Positions 9,301 to 64,000 of a DNA stretch of 64,000 nt are shown here, piece after piece. Under the pieces are notes generated by a model. That model was not told the origin of the DNA. It made no database searches and worked only from the letters and a program-made list of their open reading frames with translations. This stretch comes from Dioscorea cayenensis subsp. rotundata (Eukaryota > Streptophyta > Magnoliopsida > Dioscoreales > Dioscoreaceae): positions 248,001 through 312,000 of the forward strand of contig NC_052479.1 in assembly GCF_009730915.1 (NCBI RefSeq), given 5' to 3'. Every line of letters begins with the position of its first letter. Within the stretch, counting starts at the first letter, position 1. The translations under genes and the position numbers were made by a program.

Positions 9301-12300
9301 TTGGCAGAGTAGAAGTTGGAAGGTGAAGAACAAATCCAACGCTTCTTCTCGTCACCTGAATAAAGCATATGATGTTTTTATTTAGATTTGCAGGCACATC
9401 ACATCAATGAGGCATGCAATAATATTCTGCGTGCATGGATAAATCAAATTCATAATACACCCAGGTTAATTTTTCCAATGATAATGCAGTAGCGAAAAAG
9501 AGCTTTAGGACATCCAAAAGATTTGACATCATGCTACAAAACCATAAGGAACCCATCAAAATCACATAATAACAGCTTAAATTTATATCAAAGCAAAACA
9601 ATATGAGCAATATAAAAAATTCGCAAGTAGCTAACCCAAGGCATGAAACCAGTACACTGTATTGGTATCCTTCAACAAAATACGGACATTAAAAATACTA
9701 TAATCTGAAGACACAACATCTCACATGTTTGCTTCTAAATAGGATGTAACCTCTATCAATTAAACATTAGTCGTGATGAATTTGTCAGATTAATTTCCCA
9801 AGCTAATACTCTGTCCATTGGAGGTAGCAAGCATAGTGGGCCACTGGCCAATCTCAAAGAAGCATGCTGCATCAAATCACTCATCATAAAGACATAGAAC
9901 CATCTGGTACAATAAATAGAAATAAAATAAAATAACTTCACCAAACAAAACTAAAGTGAATTATACAAAAGCCAATGAAACAAGTGGCAACTAAAGACAA
10001 CTGTGTATATAATATAATTAATTCACTCCTTCCAATTGCTGTCTCATTAATTACATAACTAATAATGGTTCTGCTTGCATATGAGGACCAGGAGTTTCAT
10101 AAAAACAAGCAGAGCAAATATCACAAGGATATCGGAGACTACCTTTCTTTCCCTCATATTCAGAGATCATAAGAGAACATCATTCAGCAACTTCACCTAC
10201 AAATCAAAAGACATTTATTTGGAAAGATGCGCAGTATTGTTACTAATAGAAGTTGATACTAGGAAGCCTGTAATCTTCAGTAAGCAACTCACAGGGATGC
10301 ACTTTTAATCAAGGTATATAGGGCACAAAGTTAACAATATTATGGTGCCCTTGGCAATAGTTGCAGACTATTCAAACAACCATTCAAATAGCTAATAACA
10401 TCAGCGCATGTCCTAAGCACTTATAACTAATAGTATGTTTGTCACAAGGTCAACACAAAATGAAACTCAAATAAAGTTAAACACCGAGCAACAGAAATTA
10501 ACATTTAACAAATATGAACAGAACAAATTTTCAGCTATAATACCAAGCCAATCACATTGAAAAGTATCAAACTGATTCCATAATTCAGTTTTCAAAATGT
10601 GCTAAGACCTAAGAAGGGAACACAACGACCAATCAAATGGTTAATGGAGAATGCAGTTAATTGCACCATCCTAGCTATGTGCCAATAAATACCAAATCTT
10701 TATGTCTAAAATCAACGGTGTCAATTTGGCAAGTTCATGTAGTTAACTATTTTCATAAAAACACAATCAAAATCATTAAGGTAAGGAACCAGTTGCAAGC
10801 AGTGAATGACTCAAAATATGTTCCTACTATGTTATATTAATCGAAACAAATGCAGAATGATATGAGATGAGTTCTAAAATTTAAAAGCTCATCCATTGAC
10901 CCATTAATATGGTACAATAGTCATCAGCAGCCAAAAGTAAAAAAAGTATTTTAAGAAACGGTAGAATAAAATTAATAAAAAAAAAATCCTTGAGAAGTAT
11001 GAACTTTTGAAATGAAGTTGTTTATGCCTGCCACTAGACAGAAATTATATTTTCTTCTAAATATTAGCAACACCAAACACAAAATAACAATAACAATAAT
11101 TAAATCAGCAACAACAGCAACAACAAGAATCAAAAGAAACAATATTCTTTAATTCAGTAGCAATAGAAGATGACTTCAGTATGGGCATTCAGTAGTGGTC
11201 TTTAGTCTCATTCTCTTGTTATTAATTGGTGTTAGCTGAAAGTTCTTGATTCCATAACAAATATGTCTTAATGGAAATGTATTTATGAGATTACCATGGC
11301 CTAACTTAGAAGTGAAAATTAATGTTTTCTGCTTCATAAGGAGTAGTGTGAGCATAACCACTGATGTCCAAGAACAATAATGGTAGTGATCTATCAACTG
11401 CCCCAGTATAAACTGATGTGATAAGGAGCAAAGGAATATCCTACTAGAGAACATCACTTGTTGACTGTTCTTAAGAAAAGAAAAAAAAATTCCGCTCCAT
11501 TTCATGTGTATCTATTCTTCTCCTCTGTCTATACCAAACATGTCTGATGAAAGAAGAATTTAATACAAAGTAGGTCTTCTATTTGTGTTTACACTGATTA
11601 ATTATGATATAGAGATGCTTACTAATAGCTTAAAAAGATAAAAACAGAATTACTGCAACCAATCCAACAATTATATGCACAGGGATTCTCCTTAGAGACA
11701 AGCATGTAAACAATCATCCAAATGTACAAAATGGAAAATTAAAAACTAAAAATGAGACAAACAATTAGATGGAATGATGAGATGGAATGTATCTTTACTG
11801 GTTTATTTTCATCACATGGAAAAAAAGAAAAATGAAGGAAAATATTCATATAATATTGTAAAAATCGACTTGAACTACCTTATAGAAGTCGGACATAGAT
11901 GGCTCCCTTGCTTCTTGATCTTTCCCACACGGATCGAAACCAAAGGAACGCAGAGACACCTCGCAAGCATCCCAATCTCCGATGCTTCAAAATGCTGCGC
12001 AAAAATCAAAAGTCAGAAGCAGAGAAATAAATAGGCACAAGGAGAAGACCAAGATGAGTGAAGAATAATTGCAAACCTGGCTTAGATGCGCCATGAGCTG
12101 GTACTCTGCAACGCCGCTTGAAACGTTGAGCTTCAGCATAGGATTCATCCTTTCATCAGCACGGCAAGCACCAAGAACCTGGGAATCCAAAGCTCGAAGC
12201 CACTGCAAAACCCCGTTCTCCAGATCCCCCCGATCAAGCAGCAGATCGGAATCCCCCTCGTTCTGAAGAGCATCTCTGAGCCTCAGGGTGAGAGAAGCCG

Positions 12301-57702: not shown

Positions 57703-58592
57703 TATCTATATATGTAAAATTATTATTTAATCCTTTGTAATAATAAATAATAATAAGGTTGAATTTTTTAGAAAAGGCCTTCACTGTAATAATAATTAAA
57801 AACAGGTAGTATTCAAACGAAAGATGTTTTATTAAATAATAAAATTGTAAGTGAAGATTTTTTCAATAAATTATTATAAAACAGAACAAGATTTGTATAA
57901 TAATATACATCAATATTATACTAGATATATATATATATATATAGTAAATTGAATCGAAACAGTAAAACCAGCAAAACAAAAACCAATACCAATCGCAATT
58001 GAATCGAAATCAAATCAACGAACGCCAAATCATACCTCAGAGAGATATTCAACAAGAAGTTGAAGGGATCCAACCGTTCTTATCCAACTCAACAACTAAG
58101 CGCTCAAGTTTGGATAAGATTCACGACCCCGCAGCTCACTGCGGTCGGAGCTCAGCGAGAACAGAGGCGAAACGCGAACGAGAAGTCGGTGGAAGCCCAA
58201 GGCAAGAGCACGTCGGCGGCGGCGACGACGACAACAACGACGGCGACGGAGGCGGCCGGCCGGTCCTAGGCGACGACCACAAGAGAAGAAAGAGAGGAAC
58301 AGAAAAAAGAGGGGTTTTTTTTTTTAAAATATTGCAATTTTTTTAATTATATATTAAAATAAGTATCTTTTATATTAATTATCAAAATGCGCAAAAAATA
58401 CTATACAGTGTACTTGTATAATATTTTTTTGCACATGGGTTATATTTAAATTTTTTTTTTAATTTTATAATAGTTTTTTATATGAAATTTTACATTTACA
58501 ATCTTACAAATTTTTTAAATTAATTTTCTTTCACAACTCTATTTAAATTTTACAATGGTTTTTATATAATATTTTACGTTTTAGTTTTTAGT
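57703..58592. other. Spacer with GC-rich triplet island
   Basis: AT-rich flanks with a TA microsatellite (57925-57943) around a GC-rich island (58120-58290) containing CGG/CGA/CAA triplets. An open frame 57999-58346 (plus) covers the island, but its Asp/Gly-rich composition follows from the triplets and I do not accept it as a gene. The island could be the 5' part of a minus-strand gene or a captured fragment. Confidence 0.55.
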
Positions 58593-59335
58593 GGAAATTG
58601 CCAAAAAAACCCTTTAAGTTTGTAAAATTGCCAAAAACACCCCGTTAGTTTTGCAATCCCCAAAAACCCCCTCCTTTTAAAGTCTATGTTTTTCAAACCC
58701 CCAAACCCTGTAACGAATGTGAACGGAGTGAGTTTCAAATTTTTTGGATGAAAATGCCCTTGCATGGGGAGTCGTGGCTGCAGCCATCTCGGCGATTTGA
58801 GAGGAAGTGGGGGGTTTTCCGTAGGGTAACCCCGAGAGGCAATTTATTGGAGCCGTTTAATTGCTTTTTCTCAACTCACGTCTTGACTTTTTCCATTTCG
58901 AGTTGTCTCCGAGTTGTCTCTACGTGAAGCCTCTGTAATTAGCATTTCATCGACTTTTTCCCTTTCCACCCGGTATCTCGAAGGAGAAGTCCCCCATGCA
59001 ACTAGTTGGCATTTCATCGAGTTTCTGATCTAAGGTATTGAGTATGGTTTTTATGTTAAGCTGTCATTACTAAAGAAAGATTTTTTTCGGTTTTTGTTTT
59101 TGTGCTCCTGCTTTTTGTTGGAAGATATTGAAGTCTGCAGGGGGATTTCTCATTTGGGGTTTTTGTTAGTCTGCAGGAGATTTCTCGGCTAGGGTTTTTG
59201 TTTTTGTTTTGCAGTTTTCAGTATGTATACACTATCGAAATAGTTTTTCGATTGTTATGATTTAGTGTAATATTTATAATGTACATTTCCGTTTCGTTTG
59301 ATATGGTTGCGATTTCTACAAATGAGATGTTACTG

Positions 59336-59464
59336 ATTTAACATTTGTTGTCTCTGTTCAGTATTCTCGTCTACGTTTAACAAAAATGGGTCTCTGTTTA
59401 ACATTTTATATCTCTGTTTAATAAGCGAGAGTTTACTGGTTTAAAACCTTATATTTCAGCTTAA
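59336..59464 (+). repeat. Phased GTTTAA array 1
   Basis: GTTTAA or a one-to-two-base variant at 59336, 59356, 59375, 59396, 59416, 59439 and 59459: steps of 20, 19, 21, 20, 23 and 20. Sequence between the words is not conserved. Confidence 0.75.
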
Positions 59465-60353
59465 ACTTTTGCAATCTGCATGTTGAATGTGTTGTTATTG
59501 ATCGCGAGCTTGTGATTATGGCGGTCGACCCTAGTTAATGGGCGTTGCTATTTGACACGGTTGTGGAGACCTTAGCTGAATTGAAAGTTAACATGACCCC
59601 TCGACATTGGGAGATTATTCGAAGGACACCGTTTGCAGCGTTCATCTGGTGGAAGCCATATACCAGAGAGGCCCTTCTTGATTCTCTTTTGCAAAGATGC
59701 GATGGTCGCACCAATAAATTCGAGGATCGGGAAAAGCTGCTGAGTTTCGAGACCTCGAGATGTGGCCCTCGTTCTTGGTCTGCGTTGCGATGGCGGCGCG
59801 ATGGTCTTCGAAGAAGAAAAACCGGTCGGCGTTCGAAGGGCGGTATCTATCAAAGACCTCACGAGAGCACGGAGACTCCATCAAGAGCACTACGGTGCAA
59901 CTTGTTCGACGGAGGGAGAAGAAGATAATTTTGTCAAACTCGATGGTGTACCTCGTAGGGGGACGGTCCCTCTTCCCAAATACATCATGCTCGGTTCGAG
60001 CTGGATCGTTGATTACGTCGATGATCTACCGACCGTGAGGCGATCACGCGTAGGGCGCGGGCGACGCGAAGTGGCTTATGGAGGATATTCCATGGCGGCG
60101 CCCGAGTGCAAGATAGATGCTGCGGGAAGAAGACCAACACGAGAGTACATTAAGGGTTGCTCGGTCGCGCTTAACGTCCGGTTTCTGGTGGCCGGAGCAG
60201 GGGAAGAAAGTCCGTTTCGTGAGATCCCAAGGATCTTTGTGCTACGGTGAAAGTACTTACCGGAAGCAGCGACGGTAGAAAAGCGAGCTTGTCAGTCGCT
60301 CGATGGAAAAAGAGGTAATAAATCATGGACGATGTCTAACATAAGTCTTTAAT

Positions 60354-60484
60354 GTTTAAACATTTTATTTAGCGTTTAACTTTAGTATTTACCGTTTAAC
60401 TATTATTCATAACCGTTTAAATATTTTGTTCTCCGTTTAATTATATTCTATAACGTTTAAATATATAGTTTTTTTATAGTTTAA
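60354..60484 (+). repeat. Phased GTTTAA array 2
   Basis: Exact GTTTAA at 60354, 60374, 60394, 60415, 60435, 60455 and 60479: steps of 20, 20, 21, 20, 20 and 24. Five are preceded by C (CGTTTAA). It lies between two coding blocks of the Ulp1-like gene, probably in an intron. Confidence 0.85.
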
Positions 60485-61404
60485 AATGAATGATCTCATT
60501 TGAAATTGTTTGGTTTACATATGTTAGTTTCTGAGCTGGTTCGGCGAATCTTTGAAGAAGAAAATATTTGTTGGCGCCAACTGAAGCGGATGGATGCCGT
60601 TGCTCGGGAACCACTTGCTCGAGGCGGGGATGAGAGGCGACCTCTCATCGTGCGCTGGACGCCCGTTCTCCTACTTCCGACCCACCACGCGCACGCATTC
60701 CTCGAGCCGGAGAAGCCCTCCCCTACCCGGCGGATTGCAACAACCCCCTACCACGACAACGGCAGTCCCCCGACCATGGCGGCTCCTCCGAGCCGTGGCA
60801 GCCCCAGCGGTGACATTGGGCGAAGATGTCACCGCAACTCTTATGCGGGCGTGCCGGATATTGATGACTCGAGTTTCCTCGGCTTGTCGCTCGTGTGGAG
60901 CGCTGGAAGGGCGTTCCAGGCCATTGCGCCGTCCCTCGAAAAGCATGAAGCACCGGGACGAGCGAGGCGTCGGGATTTGAGCAGCGGCGACATCATCGGG
61001 AAGGTCGTTCAAAGGCGGCCACATTCGAAGAGACTTGCGAAAAGAGGAGAACAATACGCTCTGTCTCCACCGCCGGTGACGATGAAACAATAGTAACACC
61101 ATCGGTGCTGATCTTTCATTCTTGAGTCATCGCCGATTGATGACATGGCCGTAGCGAGTGGAGGACATCGTAGATGATGTGGCCGTTCTTGCGGTTGAGA
61201 AGGTCGTTGACTCTCTTCTCGATGAAATCGTCGACCGAGTGGAGCCAGTGCCGAGATGCGGCGTCAAGATGGACACGATCCACGAAGGTCGAGAACAAGT
61301 TAAGGGTGTGTCTCCCGATGATCTTTGTTGTCATGGCCACGGTTGAGAAGATCGTCGAATCCGTTCTGTGGCCAGTGGCTGACGATCAGCATGACCCAAG
61401 CGAG

Positions 61405-61565
61405 GACACGATCCCACCACAACAAGAACCATGTAAGGAAGTGTACTGCGGTTGATCTTGTCGCCGTCAGTCCCTCGATCGAGCCGGACACAATCCCACA
61501 ACAAGAACAACAATGTAAGGATGTGTCGCGGTTGATGTTGTCGCCATCGTCCCGCGATCGAAGGA
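61405..61565 (+). repeat. Two diverged tandem units of about 80-90 bp
   Basis: GACACGATCCCACCACAACA (61405) and GACACAATCCCACAACAAGA (61497) start two units that share AGAAC, ATGTAAGGA, CGGTTGAT and TTGTCGCC in order. They lie in the middle part of the Ulp1-like gene, so they were probably coding repeats. Confidence 0.7.
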
Positions 61566-61770
61566 AGATCTTGATGAAGACCCCGAGCCGAGCAACGAGA
61601 GAAATGATCAAGGCCGATCAAAAATTGGACGAGACGGCTCGGGAAAGCTTTTTATTCGAAGAAGAAGAAATGGGTTGGCTCGAGTCGTCTTAACAAATCT
61701 GACGAGGAGTTGATGAGGATCTTCCTCAGCTGCTCTATGGGACGGGTAAGTGTAACGTTTTTATGATATT

Positions 61771-61940
61771 GTTTAAAGGGTTTCTTATAGTGTTTAACTA
61801 TTACCTAATAGTGTTTAATACCATTATGTTATCATTTAAGTTTTCGCCTTACCGTTTAATTATATATAATATCATGTAACAATTGATAATATCATTTAAA
61901 TATTTACAATATGGTCTTCTAATATCTCATTATCGTTTAA
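61771..61940 (+). repeat. Phased GTTTAA array 3
   Basis: GTTTAA or variants (ATTTAA, ATGTAA) at 61771, 61792, 61813, 61834, 61854, 61874, 61894 and 61935: steps of 21, 21, 21, 20, 20, 20 and 41 (one word missing). Confidence 0.85.
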
Positions 61941-62881
61941 CCTCGACAGCATCGCTGTGGAAGAATGACTGTCGGCATCCACATGACGAGGGTTATACTA
62001 CGCCTGAGGGGAAGGAGATGGTCACTGATGATGTGATGGGACGCTTTTCGTATGCATAATACAAAAGTCGCTGAGCAAAGAGCCATATCCTTACAAGAAG
62101 CGCGCCTCCATCATCAGACACGCTTGCATCTGTTTATGTCAAAGCGGACGACGCACATAACACAATTATGGCTATGATCGGGGATGCTTGTCGTGACTCG
62201 CATGAAGTTCAAATTGTCATCCTCCCAGATAATCATGAATGACCACTTCCATGTCGTCGTCACGGACAATGATAAACAAGAATACATGCATTATTCTTCA
62301 TGTCCGGGAATACGATAAGGGACGCGTTGGACATGGTAAGTTCTTTAATTATGTCTAATTAATATCTGTTTGGTATTTAAATCGGTATTCTAATCTCGAC
62401 TTGCATATCTCGACAGCGGAATCTATTCGACCTTTGTGTCGATATGGAGTTAAGCGAGTCGGCGGCAACAAAAGTACCCGCTCGTCATGCGACACGAAAC
62501 CCCACGCCAAAAATAAGGAAGCGTCGATCGCGCGGCTACGTCGTGCGGTTTATCGAGCAATTATCGTAGGGGTGAGAAGTTACGGCTCACCGCAGACGAG
62601 GGCGTTCCTTACCTCGGATTACGGTATGTTACCCGCATACTTAAGGAGGGAGGCGGTGGCGTCCATGACAAAGTGGGAGTCAGTCACAAGCGGGTTAAAT
62701 TGCATTTTTGAATAACATGTCTTGTATATCGACTCGTCAATTTTGTTTTCAAATGTAAATCGGACAAATTCAATTCATTGTTTTCGTGTTCGAAGAACAT
62801 GACTTGTATATCTTAATGTAAATTTTTGTTTTGTTTTTGAATTGTAAAAGCGGGTTAAATTCCATTCGGTTTTATTTCATT

Positions 62882-63033
62882 GTTTAATTTACGTTGTAAT
62901 TGTGTACATTTGACTTTCATTGTTTAAATATAGTATATATCGCTTTAAACATCGGGTTTTAAATATTTCAAATTACGGTGTACCCGTTTAAAATAACACT
63001 TTCTCTGTTTAAATAAATGCACTCATTGTTTAA
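62882..63033 (+). repeat. Phased GTTTAA array 4
   Basis: GTTTAA or variant at 62882, 62922, 62943, 62986, 63007 and 63028: steps of 40, 21, 43, 21 and 21, that is one or two periods of about 20.5 bp. Confidence 0.7.
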
Positions 63034-63177
63034 CTAAATATGGAAAGTTGCCCATCAATACACAATTCAATTCATTGTTTTTGTTTTCGAAGAACATGAC
63101 TTGTATATCTCAATGTAAATTTTGTTTGTTTTCAATTGTAAAGGCTGGGGTTAAATTTCATTCGATTTCATTTCATT

Positions 63178-63312
63178 GTTTAATTTACGTTGTAGTTGTG
63201 TACATTTCCGTTTCATTGTTTAAATATACCATATGCTCGTTTTAAACATCGAGTTGAAATATTTCAAATTACGATAGTATCCGCTTTTAAAAATAACAAT
63301 GTCTCCGTGTAA
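63178..63312 (+). repeat. Phased GTTTAA array 5
   Basis: Words at 63178, 63218 and 63239, with weaker ones after. It is the duplicated counterpart of array 4, keeping the 40 and 21 steps but more decayed downstream. Confidence 0.55.
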
Positions 63313-63927
63313 ATACATTCAATTCGTTAGTAAATACACAATGTTTCCCCATGCATCGTCGGTTTATTAACAATGCCTAGTCGCGACAGCTTTATCGTAC
63401 AAGATCATCGATTGTGACCGGATCCTGGCGATGAGCTGCGATGTAACTCGCGGACATCAAACGCTGCGACTCGATCCCTCTTTCGTCTAGGCCGCCCGTG
63501 CCTTCTAGTCACATGCGGTCATGAAAGCGAAGCTCACGATTTCCGTCGAAGGCTCGTCATCGTCGGGTATGGGGAATATAGCTTCCTTGTATGCCCGGTT
63601 TGTAATTGTCGACGGTGAAGTACCCGCTAATAAATCGATGTACGTTGGTGTACATCGCATTATTAGCACGCAAGCATGTTTGCAAGGGATACCATAAACT
63701 TGCCACTTTCGACATGAACAAGTTCGATGGCGAGATCCACGGAGTTCTTTGCGATTGGTCGATCACTCGTAACGATCATCGTCACAACGACCAACACGAA
63801 GATTTCGCTGCTCTCAACAATGATCTCTAACTCGAATGTATGTCAGGGCGTAAGTAGGTCTCCCATTTGGTCGCTTGCTCACATGGGTTACATAACATGC
63901 GCATCAACTTGAACACGGCAAAATAAG
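63313..63927. other. GC-richer stretch between arrays 5 and 6
   Basis: The base composition resembles the coding blocks of the Ulp1-like element (CGA/TCG-rich). Frames such as 63557-63766 (minus) and 63606-63830 (plus) are open, but I recognise no domain. On the minus strand the words SLWYPLQTCLRANNAMYTNV look protein-like, so this may be a minus-strand or captured coding remnant. Confidence 0.4.
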
Positions 63928-64000
63928 GTTAAACAAAGACGGTGATGGTTAAATAATTAAGTCAACATGTTTAAACATTATTGTAATTAAATAAACGAAA
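63928..64000 (+). repeat. Phased GTTTAA/GTTAAA array 6, running to the window end
   Basis: Words at 63928 (GTTAAA), 63948 (GTTAAA), 63969 (GTTTAA) and a weaker one near 63985-63990 keep the step of about 20-21 bp up to the window end. Confidence 0.6.

What the first reader, a model, noticed from the sequence alone, without database searches (positions are those of the whole stretch)
59336..64000. GTTTAA words phased at 20-21 bp in six separate spacer arrays of the Ulp1-like element
Seen directly: in array 2 exact GTTTAA occurs at steps of 20, 20, 21, 20, 20 and 24; array 3 steps 21, 21, 21, 20, 20, 20; arrays 1, 4, 5 and 6 keep the same period or its double. The bases between the words are not conserved, so this is not an ordinary minisatellite. 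A 20.5-bp period is about two helical turns, placing each word on the same DNA face. The arrays sit between coding blocks, probably in introns. Possible meanings (inference): phased binding sites for the element's own protein, a nucleosome or bending signal, or fossils of a 20-bp repeat constrained only at the core word. I know of no described family with this pattern.
Basis: seen in the sequence. Interest (0 to 1): 0.78.

Follow-up and report, generated by a model that had tools for sequence, protein, structure and literature searches.

The report
Phased GTTTAA arrays in yam transposon
A jumping gene in the yam genome carries a six-letter DNA word repeated about every two turns of the helix in most of its non-coding parts, probably as landing sites for a protein the element makes to escape silencing, and some related elements in the same genome use other words at the same spacing.

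Summary
In detail: exact GTTTAA pairs 20-21 bp apart number 11 in 58593-64000, and none of 200 dinucleotide shuffles has one. The carrier is a Mutator-like transposon of 9,627 bp with a 9-bp target duplication, starting at window 58591. Its + strand gene is broken here; diverged relatives give PMD/DUF1985, a tandem peptide region and a Ulp1 (C48) domain. A transposase gene runs the other way. Words fill three of four inferred introns and the 3' region; mapped exons hold none.

In a systematic sample of 20 DUF1985 loci, 12 show phased words and 8 do not; two of the 12 use other words, CRCTTAA and TGTGTATA, at the same step.

Best explanation (inferred): addresses for the element's own VANC-like anti-silencing protein. 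VANC21 of Arabidopsis binds short co-oriented motifs in non-coding tandem repeats, and VANC6 targets carry others (PMC5735166). From memory, Sasaki et al. 2022 (not held) describe helical periodicity of such motifs in eudicots. So the kind is known; the monocot host and several words on one lattice appear new. Binding and demethylation are untested.

The parts
58582..58590 (.). left copy of the 9-bp target site duplication TAGTTTTTA
   Evidence: the same 9 bp follow the right end outside the window; exact 9-bp duplications found by script in 5 of 6 copies examined (own, g2, g3, g5, g6; in g4 the end motifs were not found; in g2 the site is a TAA repeat)
58591..64000 (+). left part of the Mutator-like element (9,627 bp in all; right end G000:C9:316217, outside the window)
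59336..59519 (+). array 1, inferred 5'UTR intron just before the ATG; exact words at 59375, 59396, 59416, 59439
   Evidence: relative L050 has CAG before GCTTGTG (sequence)
59520..60314 (+). exon 1, PMD/DUF1985 exon by homology (frame broken in this copy)
   Evidence: homologous exon of L050: PF10536 E 8.4e-15, PF09331 E 5.3e-8; the window's own open pieces gave neither
60315..60527 (+). array 2, intron GTAATA...GTTAG; 7 exact words at 60354, 60374, 60394, 60415, 60435, 60455, 60479
   Evidence: GT-AG borders read from the sequence, no RNA data
60528..61745 (+). exon 2, variable region (frame broken)
   Evidence: tandem 82-bp repeat 61404-61561; 51-aa tandem peptide repeat in L050
61746..61949 (+). 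array 3, intron GTAAGT...GACAG; exact words at 61771, 61792, 61813, 61854, 61935
61950..62335 (+). exon 3, first part of the Ulp1-like domain by homology (frame broken)
   Evidence: tblastn of L045 exon 3; PF02902 E 9e-7 on a joined exon 3 + exon 4 query; no PF02902 hit on L045 exon 3 alone
62336..62416 (+). intron 4, GTAAGT...GACAG; no exact word, weak one-mismatch hits only
62417..62715 (+). exon 4, end of the Ulp1-like domain by homology (frame broken)
   Evidence: homologous L035 exon: Peptidase_C48 PF02902 E 1.7e-4, 21.9 bits over cut-off 20.7; the window's own piece gave no hit
62716..63066 (+). array 5 after the coding region; exact words at 62882, 62922, 62986, 63007, 63028
63067..63370 (+). 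array 6, tandem duplicate of array 5 (85%); exact words at 63178, 63218
63505..63762 (-). SWIM exon of the convergent transposase gene
   Evidence: PF04434 E 3.9e-9
63909..63997 (-). array 7 in the transposase gene; words read on the - strand: exact at 63976 and 63934, one mismatch at 63954 and 63914

Best explanation
The element is a Mutator-like transposon of the VANDAL/Kaonashi sort whose + strand gene encodes a VANC-like protein (PMD/DUF1985, tandem peptide region, Ulp1 domain). The protein binds GTTTAA-centred sites in the element's own non-coding DNA. Sites 20-21 bp apart lie on one face of the helix, so many protein copies can sit side by side and bind cooperatively. Only dense, phased clusters are recognised, and silencing marks are removed from copies of the same family. 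Arrays grow and shrink by local tandem duplication; selection keeps word and phase while spacers drift; families diverge by changing the word while keeping the lattice. Shown: arrays, phase, location, gene content in relatives, the same phase with other words in related families. Inferred: binding by this protein, cooperativity, selection, anti-silencing.
For: Phase over chance. In 7 non-coding pieces of 59336-64000 (1,461 bp) there are 24 exact + strand words; in 5 exon pieces (3,204 bp) none on either strand. In the middle slot between words 40-42 bp apart (9 loci, both strands) 50 of 72 are exact, 19 have one mismatch, 3 have two; a control slot gives 0 exact of 72. In the window's element the spacers of different arrays are 0.32 identical against 0.31 after shuffling, within an array 0.50. 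Relatives of the gene hold PMD/DUF1985, Peptidase_C48 and tandem peptides, features described for VANC/KIU proteins. DUF1985 rings at 150 places (150 of 455 candidates were scored); 12 of 20 sampled loci have phased words, 2 of them other words. TGTGTATA pairs: 1,421 against 659 in the control; of the first 100 listed, 24 at lag 20-21 and 17 at 40-41. VANC21 binds YAGTATTAY, co-oriented and dense in introns, intergenic and terminal non-coding DNA, and VANC6 targets carry other motifs (PMC5735166).
Against: No binding, methylation or expression data. 8 of 20 sampled DUF1985 loci show no phased word. The window copy is broken: its own open pieces gave no PMD, DUF1985 or Ulp1 hit and its exon is not among the 150 DUF1985 places, so those domains rest on relatives about 70-79% alike in blastn or, for C48, on L035. 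C48 was not found on the exon pieces tried from L050, L045, g2 and the window. In five full copies a + strand array lies in the transposase half, against the sense of that gene. In three of five elements spacers of different arrays exceed the shuffled level. The intron-1 piece of the CRCTTAA locus (L072) scored 1.0, no phased word, so a change of word in all arrays of one element is not shown. CACTTAA pairs exceed their control only modestly (866 against 730). The first 745 bp hold one exact word, whereas VANC21 also sits on terminal non-coding DNA. The model of the DUF1985 exon was poor (mean pLDDT 58.6).
Confidence: 0.7

Rival explanations
1. Functionless degenerate minisatellites: a 20-bp unit duplicated locally in AT-rich introns, with the word kept by chance or by the duplication mechanism.
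For: Spacers within one array are 0.44-0.51 alike, and between arrays exceed the shuffled level in L050, L045 and L043; Tandem Repeats Finder-bp and 41-bp arrays within 60346-60466; VANC targets themselves grow by tandem repetition (PMC5735166). No rate test of words against spacers was done here.
Against: In the window's element arrays that share no spacer beyond composition share word and phase; the middle-slot test; another family has another word at the same period in the intron after the DUF1985 exon.
Confidence: 0.13
2. Binding sites of the element's own transposase, as clustered subterminal motifs serve in other DNA transposons (recalled).
For: Clustered short motifs inside a DNA transposon; arrays also in the transposase half.
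Against: The first 745 bp of the element hold a single exact word; arrays fill introns of both genes rather than the left terminus.
Confidence: 0.07
3. A host-read chromatin signal (nucleosome positioning, bending, or an anti-silencing AT phase like the periodic clusters of C. elegans introns, recalled) that needs no element protein.
For: About two helical turns, AT-rich, mostly introns.
Against: The word is a specific 6-mer and changes between families in one host with the same phase; a host signal should be one and the same.
Confidence: 0.06
4. An RNA-level intron signal, for example repeated branch-point-like TTTAAC.
For: Phased words in the first 4.9 kb are all in the sense of the Ulp1-like gene in five full copies.
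Against: Arrays also lie after the coding region and, on the + strand, in the transposase half; no known use of 20-bp phasing in splicing (own knowledge); TGTGTATA in the corresponding intron of another family does not look like a branch point.
Confidence: 0.04

Closest known systems
VANC21 / VANC6 anti-silencing systems of Arabidopsis VANDAL21 and VANDAL6 (Hosaka et al. 2017, PMC5735166; parts 1-3 of 6 and searched passages seen)
   Same: Mutator-like element; DUF1985 protein with tandem peptides in its variable part; short motifs, dense, co-oriented, in introns and intergenic DNA; arrays made by tandem repetition; related families with other motifs.
   Different: Words GTTTAA, CRCTTAA, TGTGTATA instead of YAGTATTAY and AGTTGTCC/AC; monocot host; strict 20-21 bp step (the words spacing, periodic and interval do not occur in that paper's main text); one exact word in the 5' terminal 745 bp; binding and demethylation unproven.
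Kaonashi (KIU) Ulp1-carrying non-TIR Mutator-like elements (passages of the review PMC13317346)
   Same: Ulp1 domain joined to a VANC-like gene inside a Mutator-like element; the review says such elements recognise motifs of their own kind.
   Different: Transposase phylogeny not tested here. The review places the Ulp1 capture at the monocot-eudicot separation, stresses conservation in eudicots, and also cites Ulp1 Mutator-like elements of rice, melon and grapevine, so Ulp1 elements in a monocot are not new in themselves.
Sasaki et al. 2022 EMBO J (PMC9016345; not held, not read; title seen in reference lists)
   Same: From memory: motifs act by sequence, density and helical periodicity; many VANC systems with changing motifs and domains.
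   Different: Title restricts it to eudicots; these elements are in a monocot.
SIRC repeats of Arabidopsis (PMC10342631; abstract and section 2.1 read)
   Same: Short direct repeats separated by diverse DNA in transposon-rich regions.
   Different: Repeats of 10-29 bp, 2-8 per cassette; no DUF1985 protein named in what was read; defined by detection, not by function.

Membership tests
VANDAL/VANC anti-silencing Mutator-like elements | Mutator-like transposase | tested here: met
   SWIM PF04434 E 3.9e-9 in the window; in relatives DBD_Tnp_Mut PF03108 E 4.2e-5 (23.5 bits, under its cut-off of 25) and MULE PF10551 E 0.011-0.034 (below cut-off)
VANDAL/VANC anti-silencing Mutator-like elements | 9-bp target duplication and degenerate or missing terminal inverted repeats | tested here: met
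   exact 9-bp duplications in 5 of 6 copies examined; no inverted match of 60 bp or more at E 1e-10 inside the window's element; the 9-bp feature is recalled, degenerate TIRs are stated in a passage of PMC10398659
VANDAL/VANC anti-silencing Mutator-like elements | DUF1985 protein gene | tested here: met
   met in relatives: L050 exon PF09331 E 5.3e-8, 33.4 bits, just under the cut-off of 35.1; other places exceed it. Not detected on the window's own broken pieces
VANDAL/VANC anti-silencing Mutator-like elements | variable region with tandem peptides | tested here: met
   51-aa repeat in L050, score 124 against a maximum of 37 in 500 shuffles
VANDAL/VANC anti-silencing Mutator-like elements | dense co-oriented short motifs in non-coding DNA, different between families | tested here: met
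   8 of 20 sampled DUF1985 loci have none
VANDAL/VANC anti-silencing Mutator-like elements | element protein binds the motif | not testable with these tools
   needs EMSA, DAP-seq or ChIP
VANDAL/VANC anti-silencing Mutator-like elements | expression removes DNA methylation from cognate copies | not testable with these tools
   needs methylation sequencing
VANDAL/VANC anti-silencing Mutator-like elements | transposase falls in the VANDAL clade | not tested
   no reference VANDAL sequences were fetched
Kaonashi (KIU) Ulp1 Mutator-like elements | Ulp1 (C48) domain in the same gene | tested here: met
   L035 exon 4 PF02902 E 1.7e-4 over cut-off; joined exons of two loci E 9e-7. Against: no hit on the pieces tried from the window, L050, L045, g2; no homologue at E 0.001 with a joined query, residues 590-824
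ordinary minisatellite | whole unit conserved between copies | tested here: not met
   word and a short 5' flank stand out; spacers 0.44-0.51 alike within an array

The most novel reading that the evidence does not exclude
VANC-type anti-silencing is not confined to eudicots. It operates in a monocot through a fixed two-turn (20-21 bp) DNA lattice on which the recognised word is swappable between families (GTTTAA, CRCTTAA/GCTTAA, TGTGTATA), so that lattice spacing is the conserved part of the code and the word the family key. The system would then predate the monocot-eudicot split or have moved between them.
Probability: 0.4. Interest if true: 0.7.

Novelty: new member of a known kind. Interest (0 to 1): 0.5.

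Why it matters
Sequence-specific escape from silencing is established for a few Arabidopsis transposon families. A monocot genome with many phased arrays, at least three words and DUF1985 genes at many loci would let one ask how protein and address co-evolve, whether helical phase is required, and how old the system is. It also offers word and spacing rules that could direct demethylation in plants.

Tried and rejected
Rejected: chance; splicing signal (arrays outside introns and on the + strand in the transposase half); 'words always follow the sense of the gene' (phased pairs of the first 4.9 kb follow the Ulp1-like gene in 5 of 5 copies, but the + array in the transposase half does not). 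I looked for another word in the 8 negative DUF1985 loci: L056 gave a weak hit (4 of 300 shuffles as good), L060 has about 80-bp tandem repeats without a clear word (read), the rest nothing above their shuffles.

Led nowhere: literature searches with Ulp1, GTTTAA and periodicity terms; Ulp1 homologue search with a joined query (none); exon 3 against solved structures (none); fold of the DUF1985 exon (too poor to search with). Searches whose listings showed no monocot VANC report by title or abstract start: 20 of 247 papers listed; 20 of 309; 15 of 1,707; 12 of 12. The paper most likely to matter (PMC9016345) is not held, so novelty is judged partly from memory. An 11-sequence alignment of intron 2 was only looked at; no rate test was done.

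Sample notes: 20 DUF1985 loci, every 7th row of the 150 counted by hand (rows 1 to 134; that step would give two more). Two first fetches (L053, L054) were cut short by my coordinates and completed by L071 and L072. Ten (L061-L070) were read only as a 341-391 bp piece around intron 2. L053/L071 and L059 have mixed GTTTAA/GCTTAA-like words and are counted as phased, though L071 alone does not exceed its 20 shuffles. The L054 chain was found as TTTCACTT; CRCTTAA is my reading of the sequence. A further 20 loci were planned and not obtained. Whether the TGTGTATA clusters hold DUF1985 genes was not checked; some of its lag-20 pairs come from irregular simple-repeat-like clusters.
Full report
OBSERVATION. 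In 58593-64000 exact GTTTAA occurs 25 times on the + strand; 11 pairs lie 20 or 21 bp apart, and none of 200 dinucleotide shuffles has such a pair. Array 3 needs words with one or two mismatches, intron 4 has no exact word, and arrays 5 and 6 are an 85% tandem duplicate. In the pieces tallied, 5 exon pieces (3,204 bp) hold no exact word on either strand; 7 non-coding pieces from 59336 to 64000 (1,461 bp) hold 24 on the + strand, and the 745-bp 5' end holds 1.

WHERE IT LIES. The window is G000:C9:248001-312000 of a 584-Mb genome. Two homologues named Dioscorea cayenensis subsp. rotundata sit on contigs of exactly the lengths of C14 and C16, so the host is taken to be white yam, a monocot. The element runs from window 58591 to C9:316217, 9,627 bp, between 9-bp copies of TAGTTTTTA; exact 9-bp duplications flank 5 of the 6 copies examined, and no inverted match of 60 bp or more was found inside. 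The + strand gene has four inferred coding exons. Arrays 2 and 3 coincide with GT-AG introns, array 1 lies in an inferred 5'UTR intron, arrays 5/6 after the coding region; no RNA evidence was available. The window copy is broken and its own pieces gave no PMD, DUF1985 or Ulp1 hit. Relatives gave PMD and DUF1985 in exon 1 of L050, a 51-aa tandem peptide in its exon 2, and Peptidase_C48 in exon 4 of L035 alone and in a query joined from two loci; pieces tried from L050, L045 and g2 gave no C48 hit. The opposite gene is a Mutator-type transposase.

NOT ONE COPY, NOT ONE REPEAT. The pattern CCGTTTAA-N13-CGTTTAA occurs at 853 places against 2 for the reversed control. Arrays were called in all 14 groups examined; 13 of these were chosen from hits of that word pattern and are not an unbiased sample. 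In relatives about 70-79% alike in blastn (L043, L045, L048, L050) the homologous introns keep word and phase with largely other spacers and other counts; L048 and L050 share spacers with each other. In the middle slot between words 40-42 bp apart, 50 of 72 are exact, 19 have one mismatch, 3 have two, against 0 exact of 72 in a control slot. Spacer identity within an array is 0.44-0.51 in five elements. Between arrays of one element it equals the shuffled level in the window's element (0.32 against 0.31), is close to it in g3 (0.35 against 0.33), and exceeds it in L050, L045 and L043 (0.36, 0.40, 0.44 against 0.30-0.32). So units arose by local duplication, while word and phase are shared beyond that, most clearly in the window's element.

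UNBIASED SAMPLE AND OTHER WORDS. DUF1985 was found at 150 places by protein profile; I took 20 by every 7th row. Phased words: 12 of 20. Ten have GTTTAA, two of these (L059, L053/L071) mixed with GCTTAA-like words. L054 has CRCTTAA (score 4.0, 0 of 300 shuffles as good), but its intron-1 piece L072 showed no phased word. L066 has TGTGTATA at steps 20, 20, 20, 21, 21, 20 (score 6.2, 0 of 300). Eight of 20 (L051, L056, L058, L060, L062, L067, L068, L069) show none. Genome-wide TGTGTATA pairs number 1,421 against 659 in the control; of the first 100 listed, 24 are at lag 20-21 and 17 at 40-41, and four clusters show + arrays followed within a few kilobases by - arrays, the convergent layout of this element; DUF1985 genes at those clusters were not looked for. 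CACTTAA is weaker: 866 against 730, with 13 of the first 100 at lag 20-21, 21 at 40-41 and 24 at lag 22, the last largely from another repeat with like spacers.

ORIENTATION. In five full copies every phased pair of exact words in the first 4.9 kb is on the strand of the Ulp1-like gene and none on the other. The transposase half has - strand pairs and also a + strand array.

MECHANISM. VANC21 of Arabidopsis binds YAGTATTAY in vitro and in vivo in introns, intergenic and terminal non-coding DNA of its own family; motifs are dense and co-oriented; arrays evolve by tandem repetition; VANC6 targets have other motifs; VANC proteins carry DUF1985 and tandem peptides (PMC5735166, parts 1-3 of 6 read). 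The yam family has the gene, the peptide repeats, the arrays and family-specific words. The inference is a VANC-like protein that occupies a two-turn lattice and opens the element's chromatin. Binding, cooperativity, selection and demethylation are inferred, not shown.

KNOWN OR NEW. The kind is known. From memory, Sasaki et al. 2022 (title seen; paper not held) report sequence, density and helical periodicity of VANC motifs in eudicots. A 2026 review (passages only) says that Ulp1-carrying VANC genes recognise motifs of their own kind, dates the Ulp1 capture to the separation of monocots and eudicots, stresses conservation in eudicots, and cites Ulp1 Mutator-like elements of rice. I saw no report of phased VANC-type arrays in a monocot in the listings, which show a part of the matching papers in a library that lacks most subscription journals. 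New here as far as seen: the monocot host, GTTTAA, the strict 20-21 bp step, and at least three words at that step in one genome.

Element length and right end were corrected; the tally of non-coding pieces was corrected; results on the broken window copy, on missing C48 hits and on L072 were added, and the confidence of the best explanation was lowered from 0.72 to 0.70 for them, with small rises for two rivals.

Noticed in passing
window 58319-58582 and G000:C9:316700-316975: Inverted repeat (87% over 276 bp) flanking the element outside its ends, as if it had inserted into another element with inverted ends.
   Followed up: no
window 61404-61561: 82-bp tandem repeat inside exon 2, at the place of the tandem peptide region of L050.
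   Followed up: partly
G000:C1:25330-26740 and C1:1109406-1110651: Dense GTTTAA arrays over more than 1 kb with spacers of another kind (AAATGAGTTTTCT), perhaps another family using the same word.
   Followed up: no
L060 intron-2 side: About 80-bp tandem repeats (four times 20 bp) in a DUF1985 family without an evident word (sequence).
   Followed up: no
L031+L032 joined coordinates 9705-9815 and 10387-11590: A + strand GTTTAA array on the far side of the transposase exons, and further - strand open frames that may be a third gene.
   Followed up: no
G000, many places: A dispersed repeat with two CACTTAA words 22 bp apart (CACTTAAAAATYGAGACACCAACACTTAA and variants), apparently unrelated to the phased arrays.
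   Followed up: no
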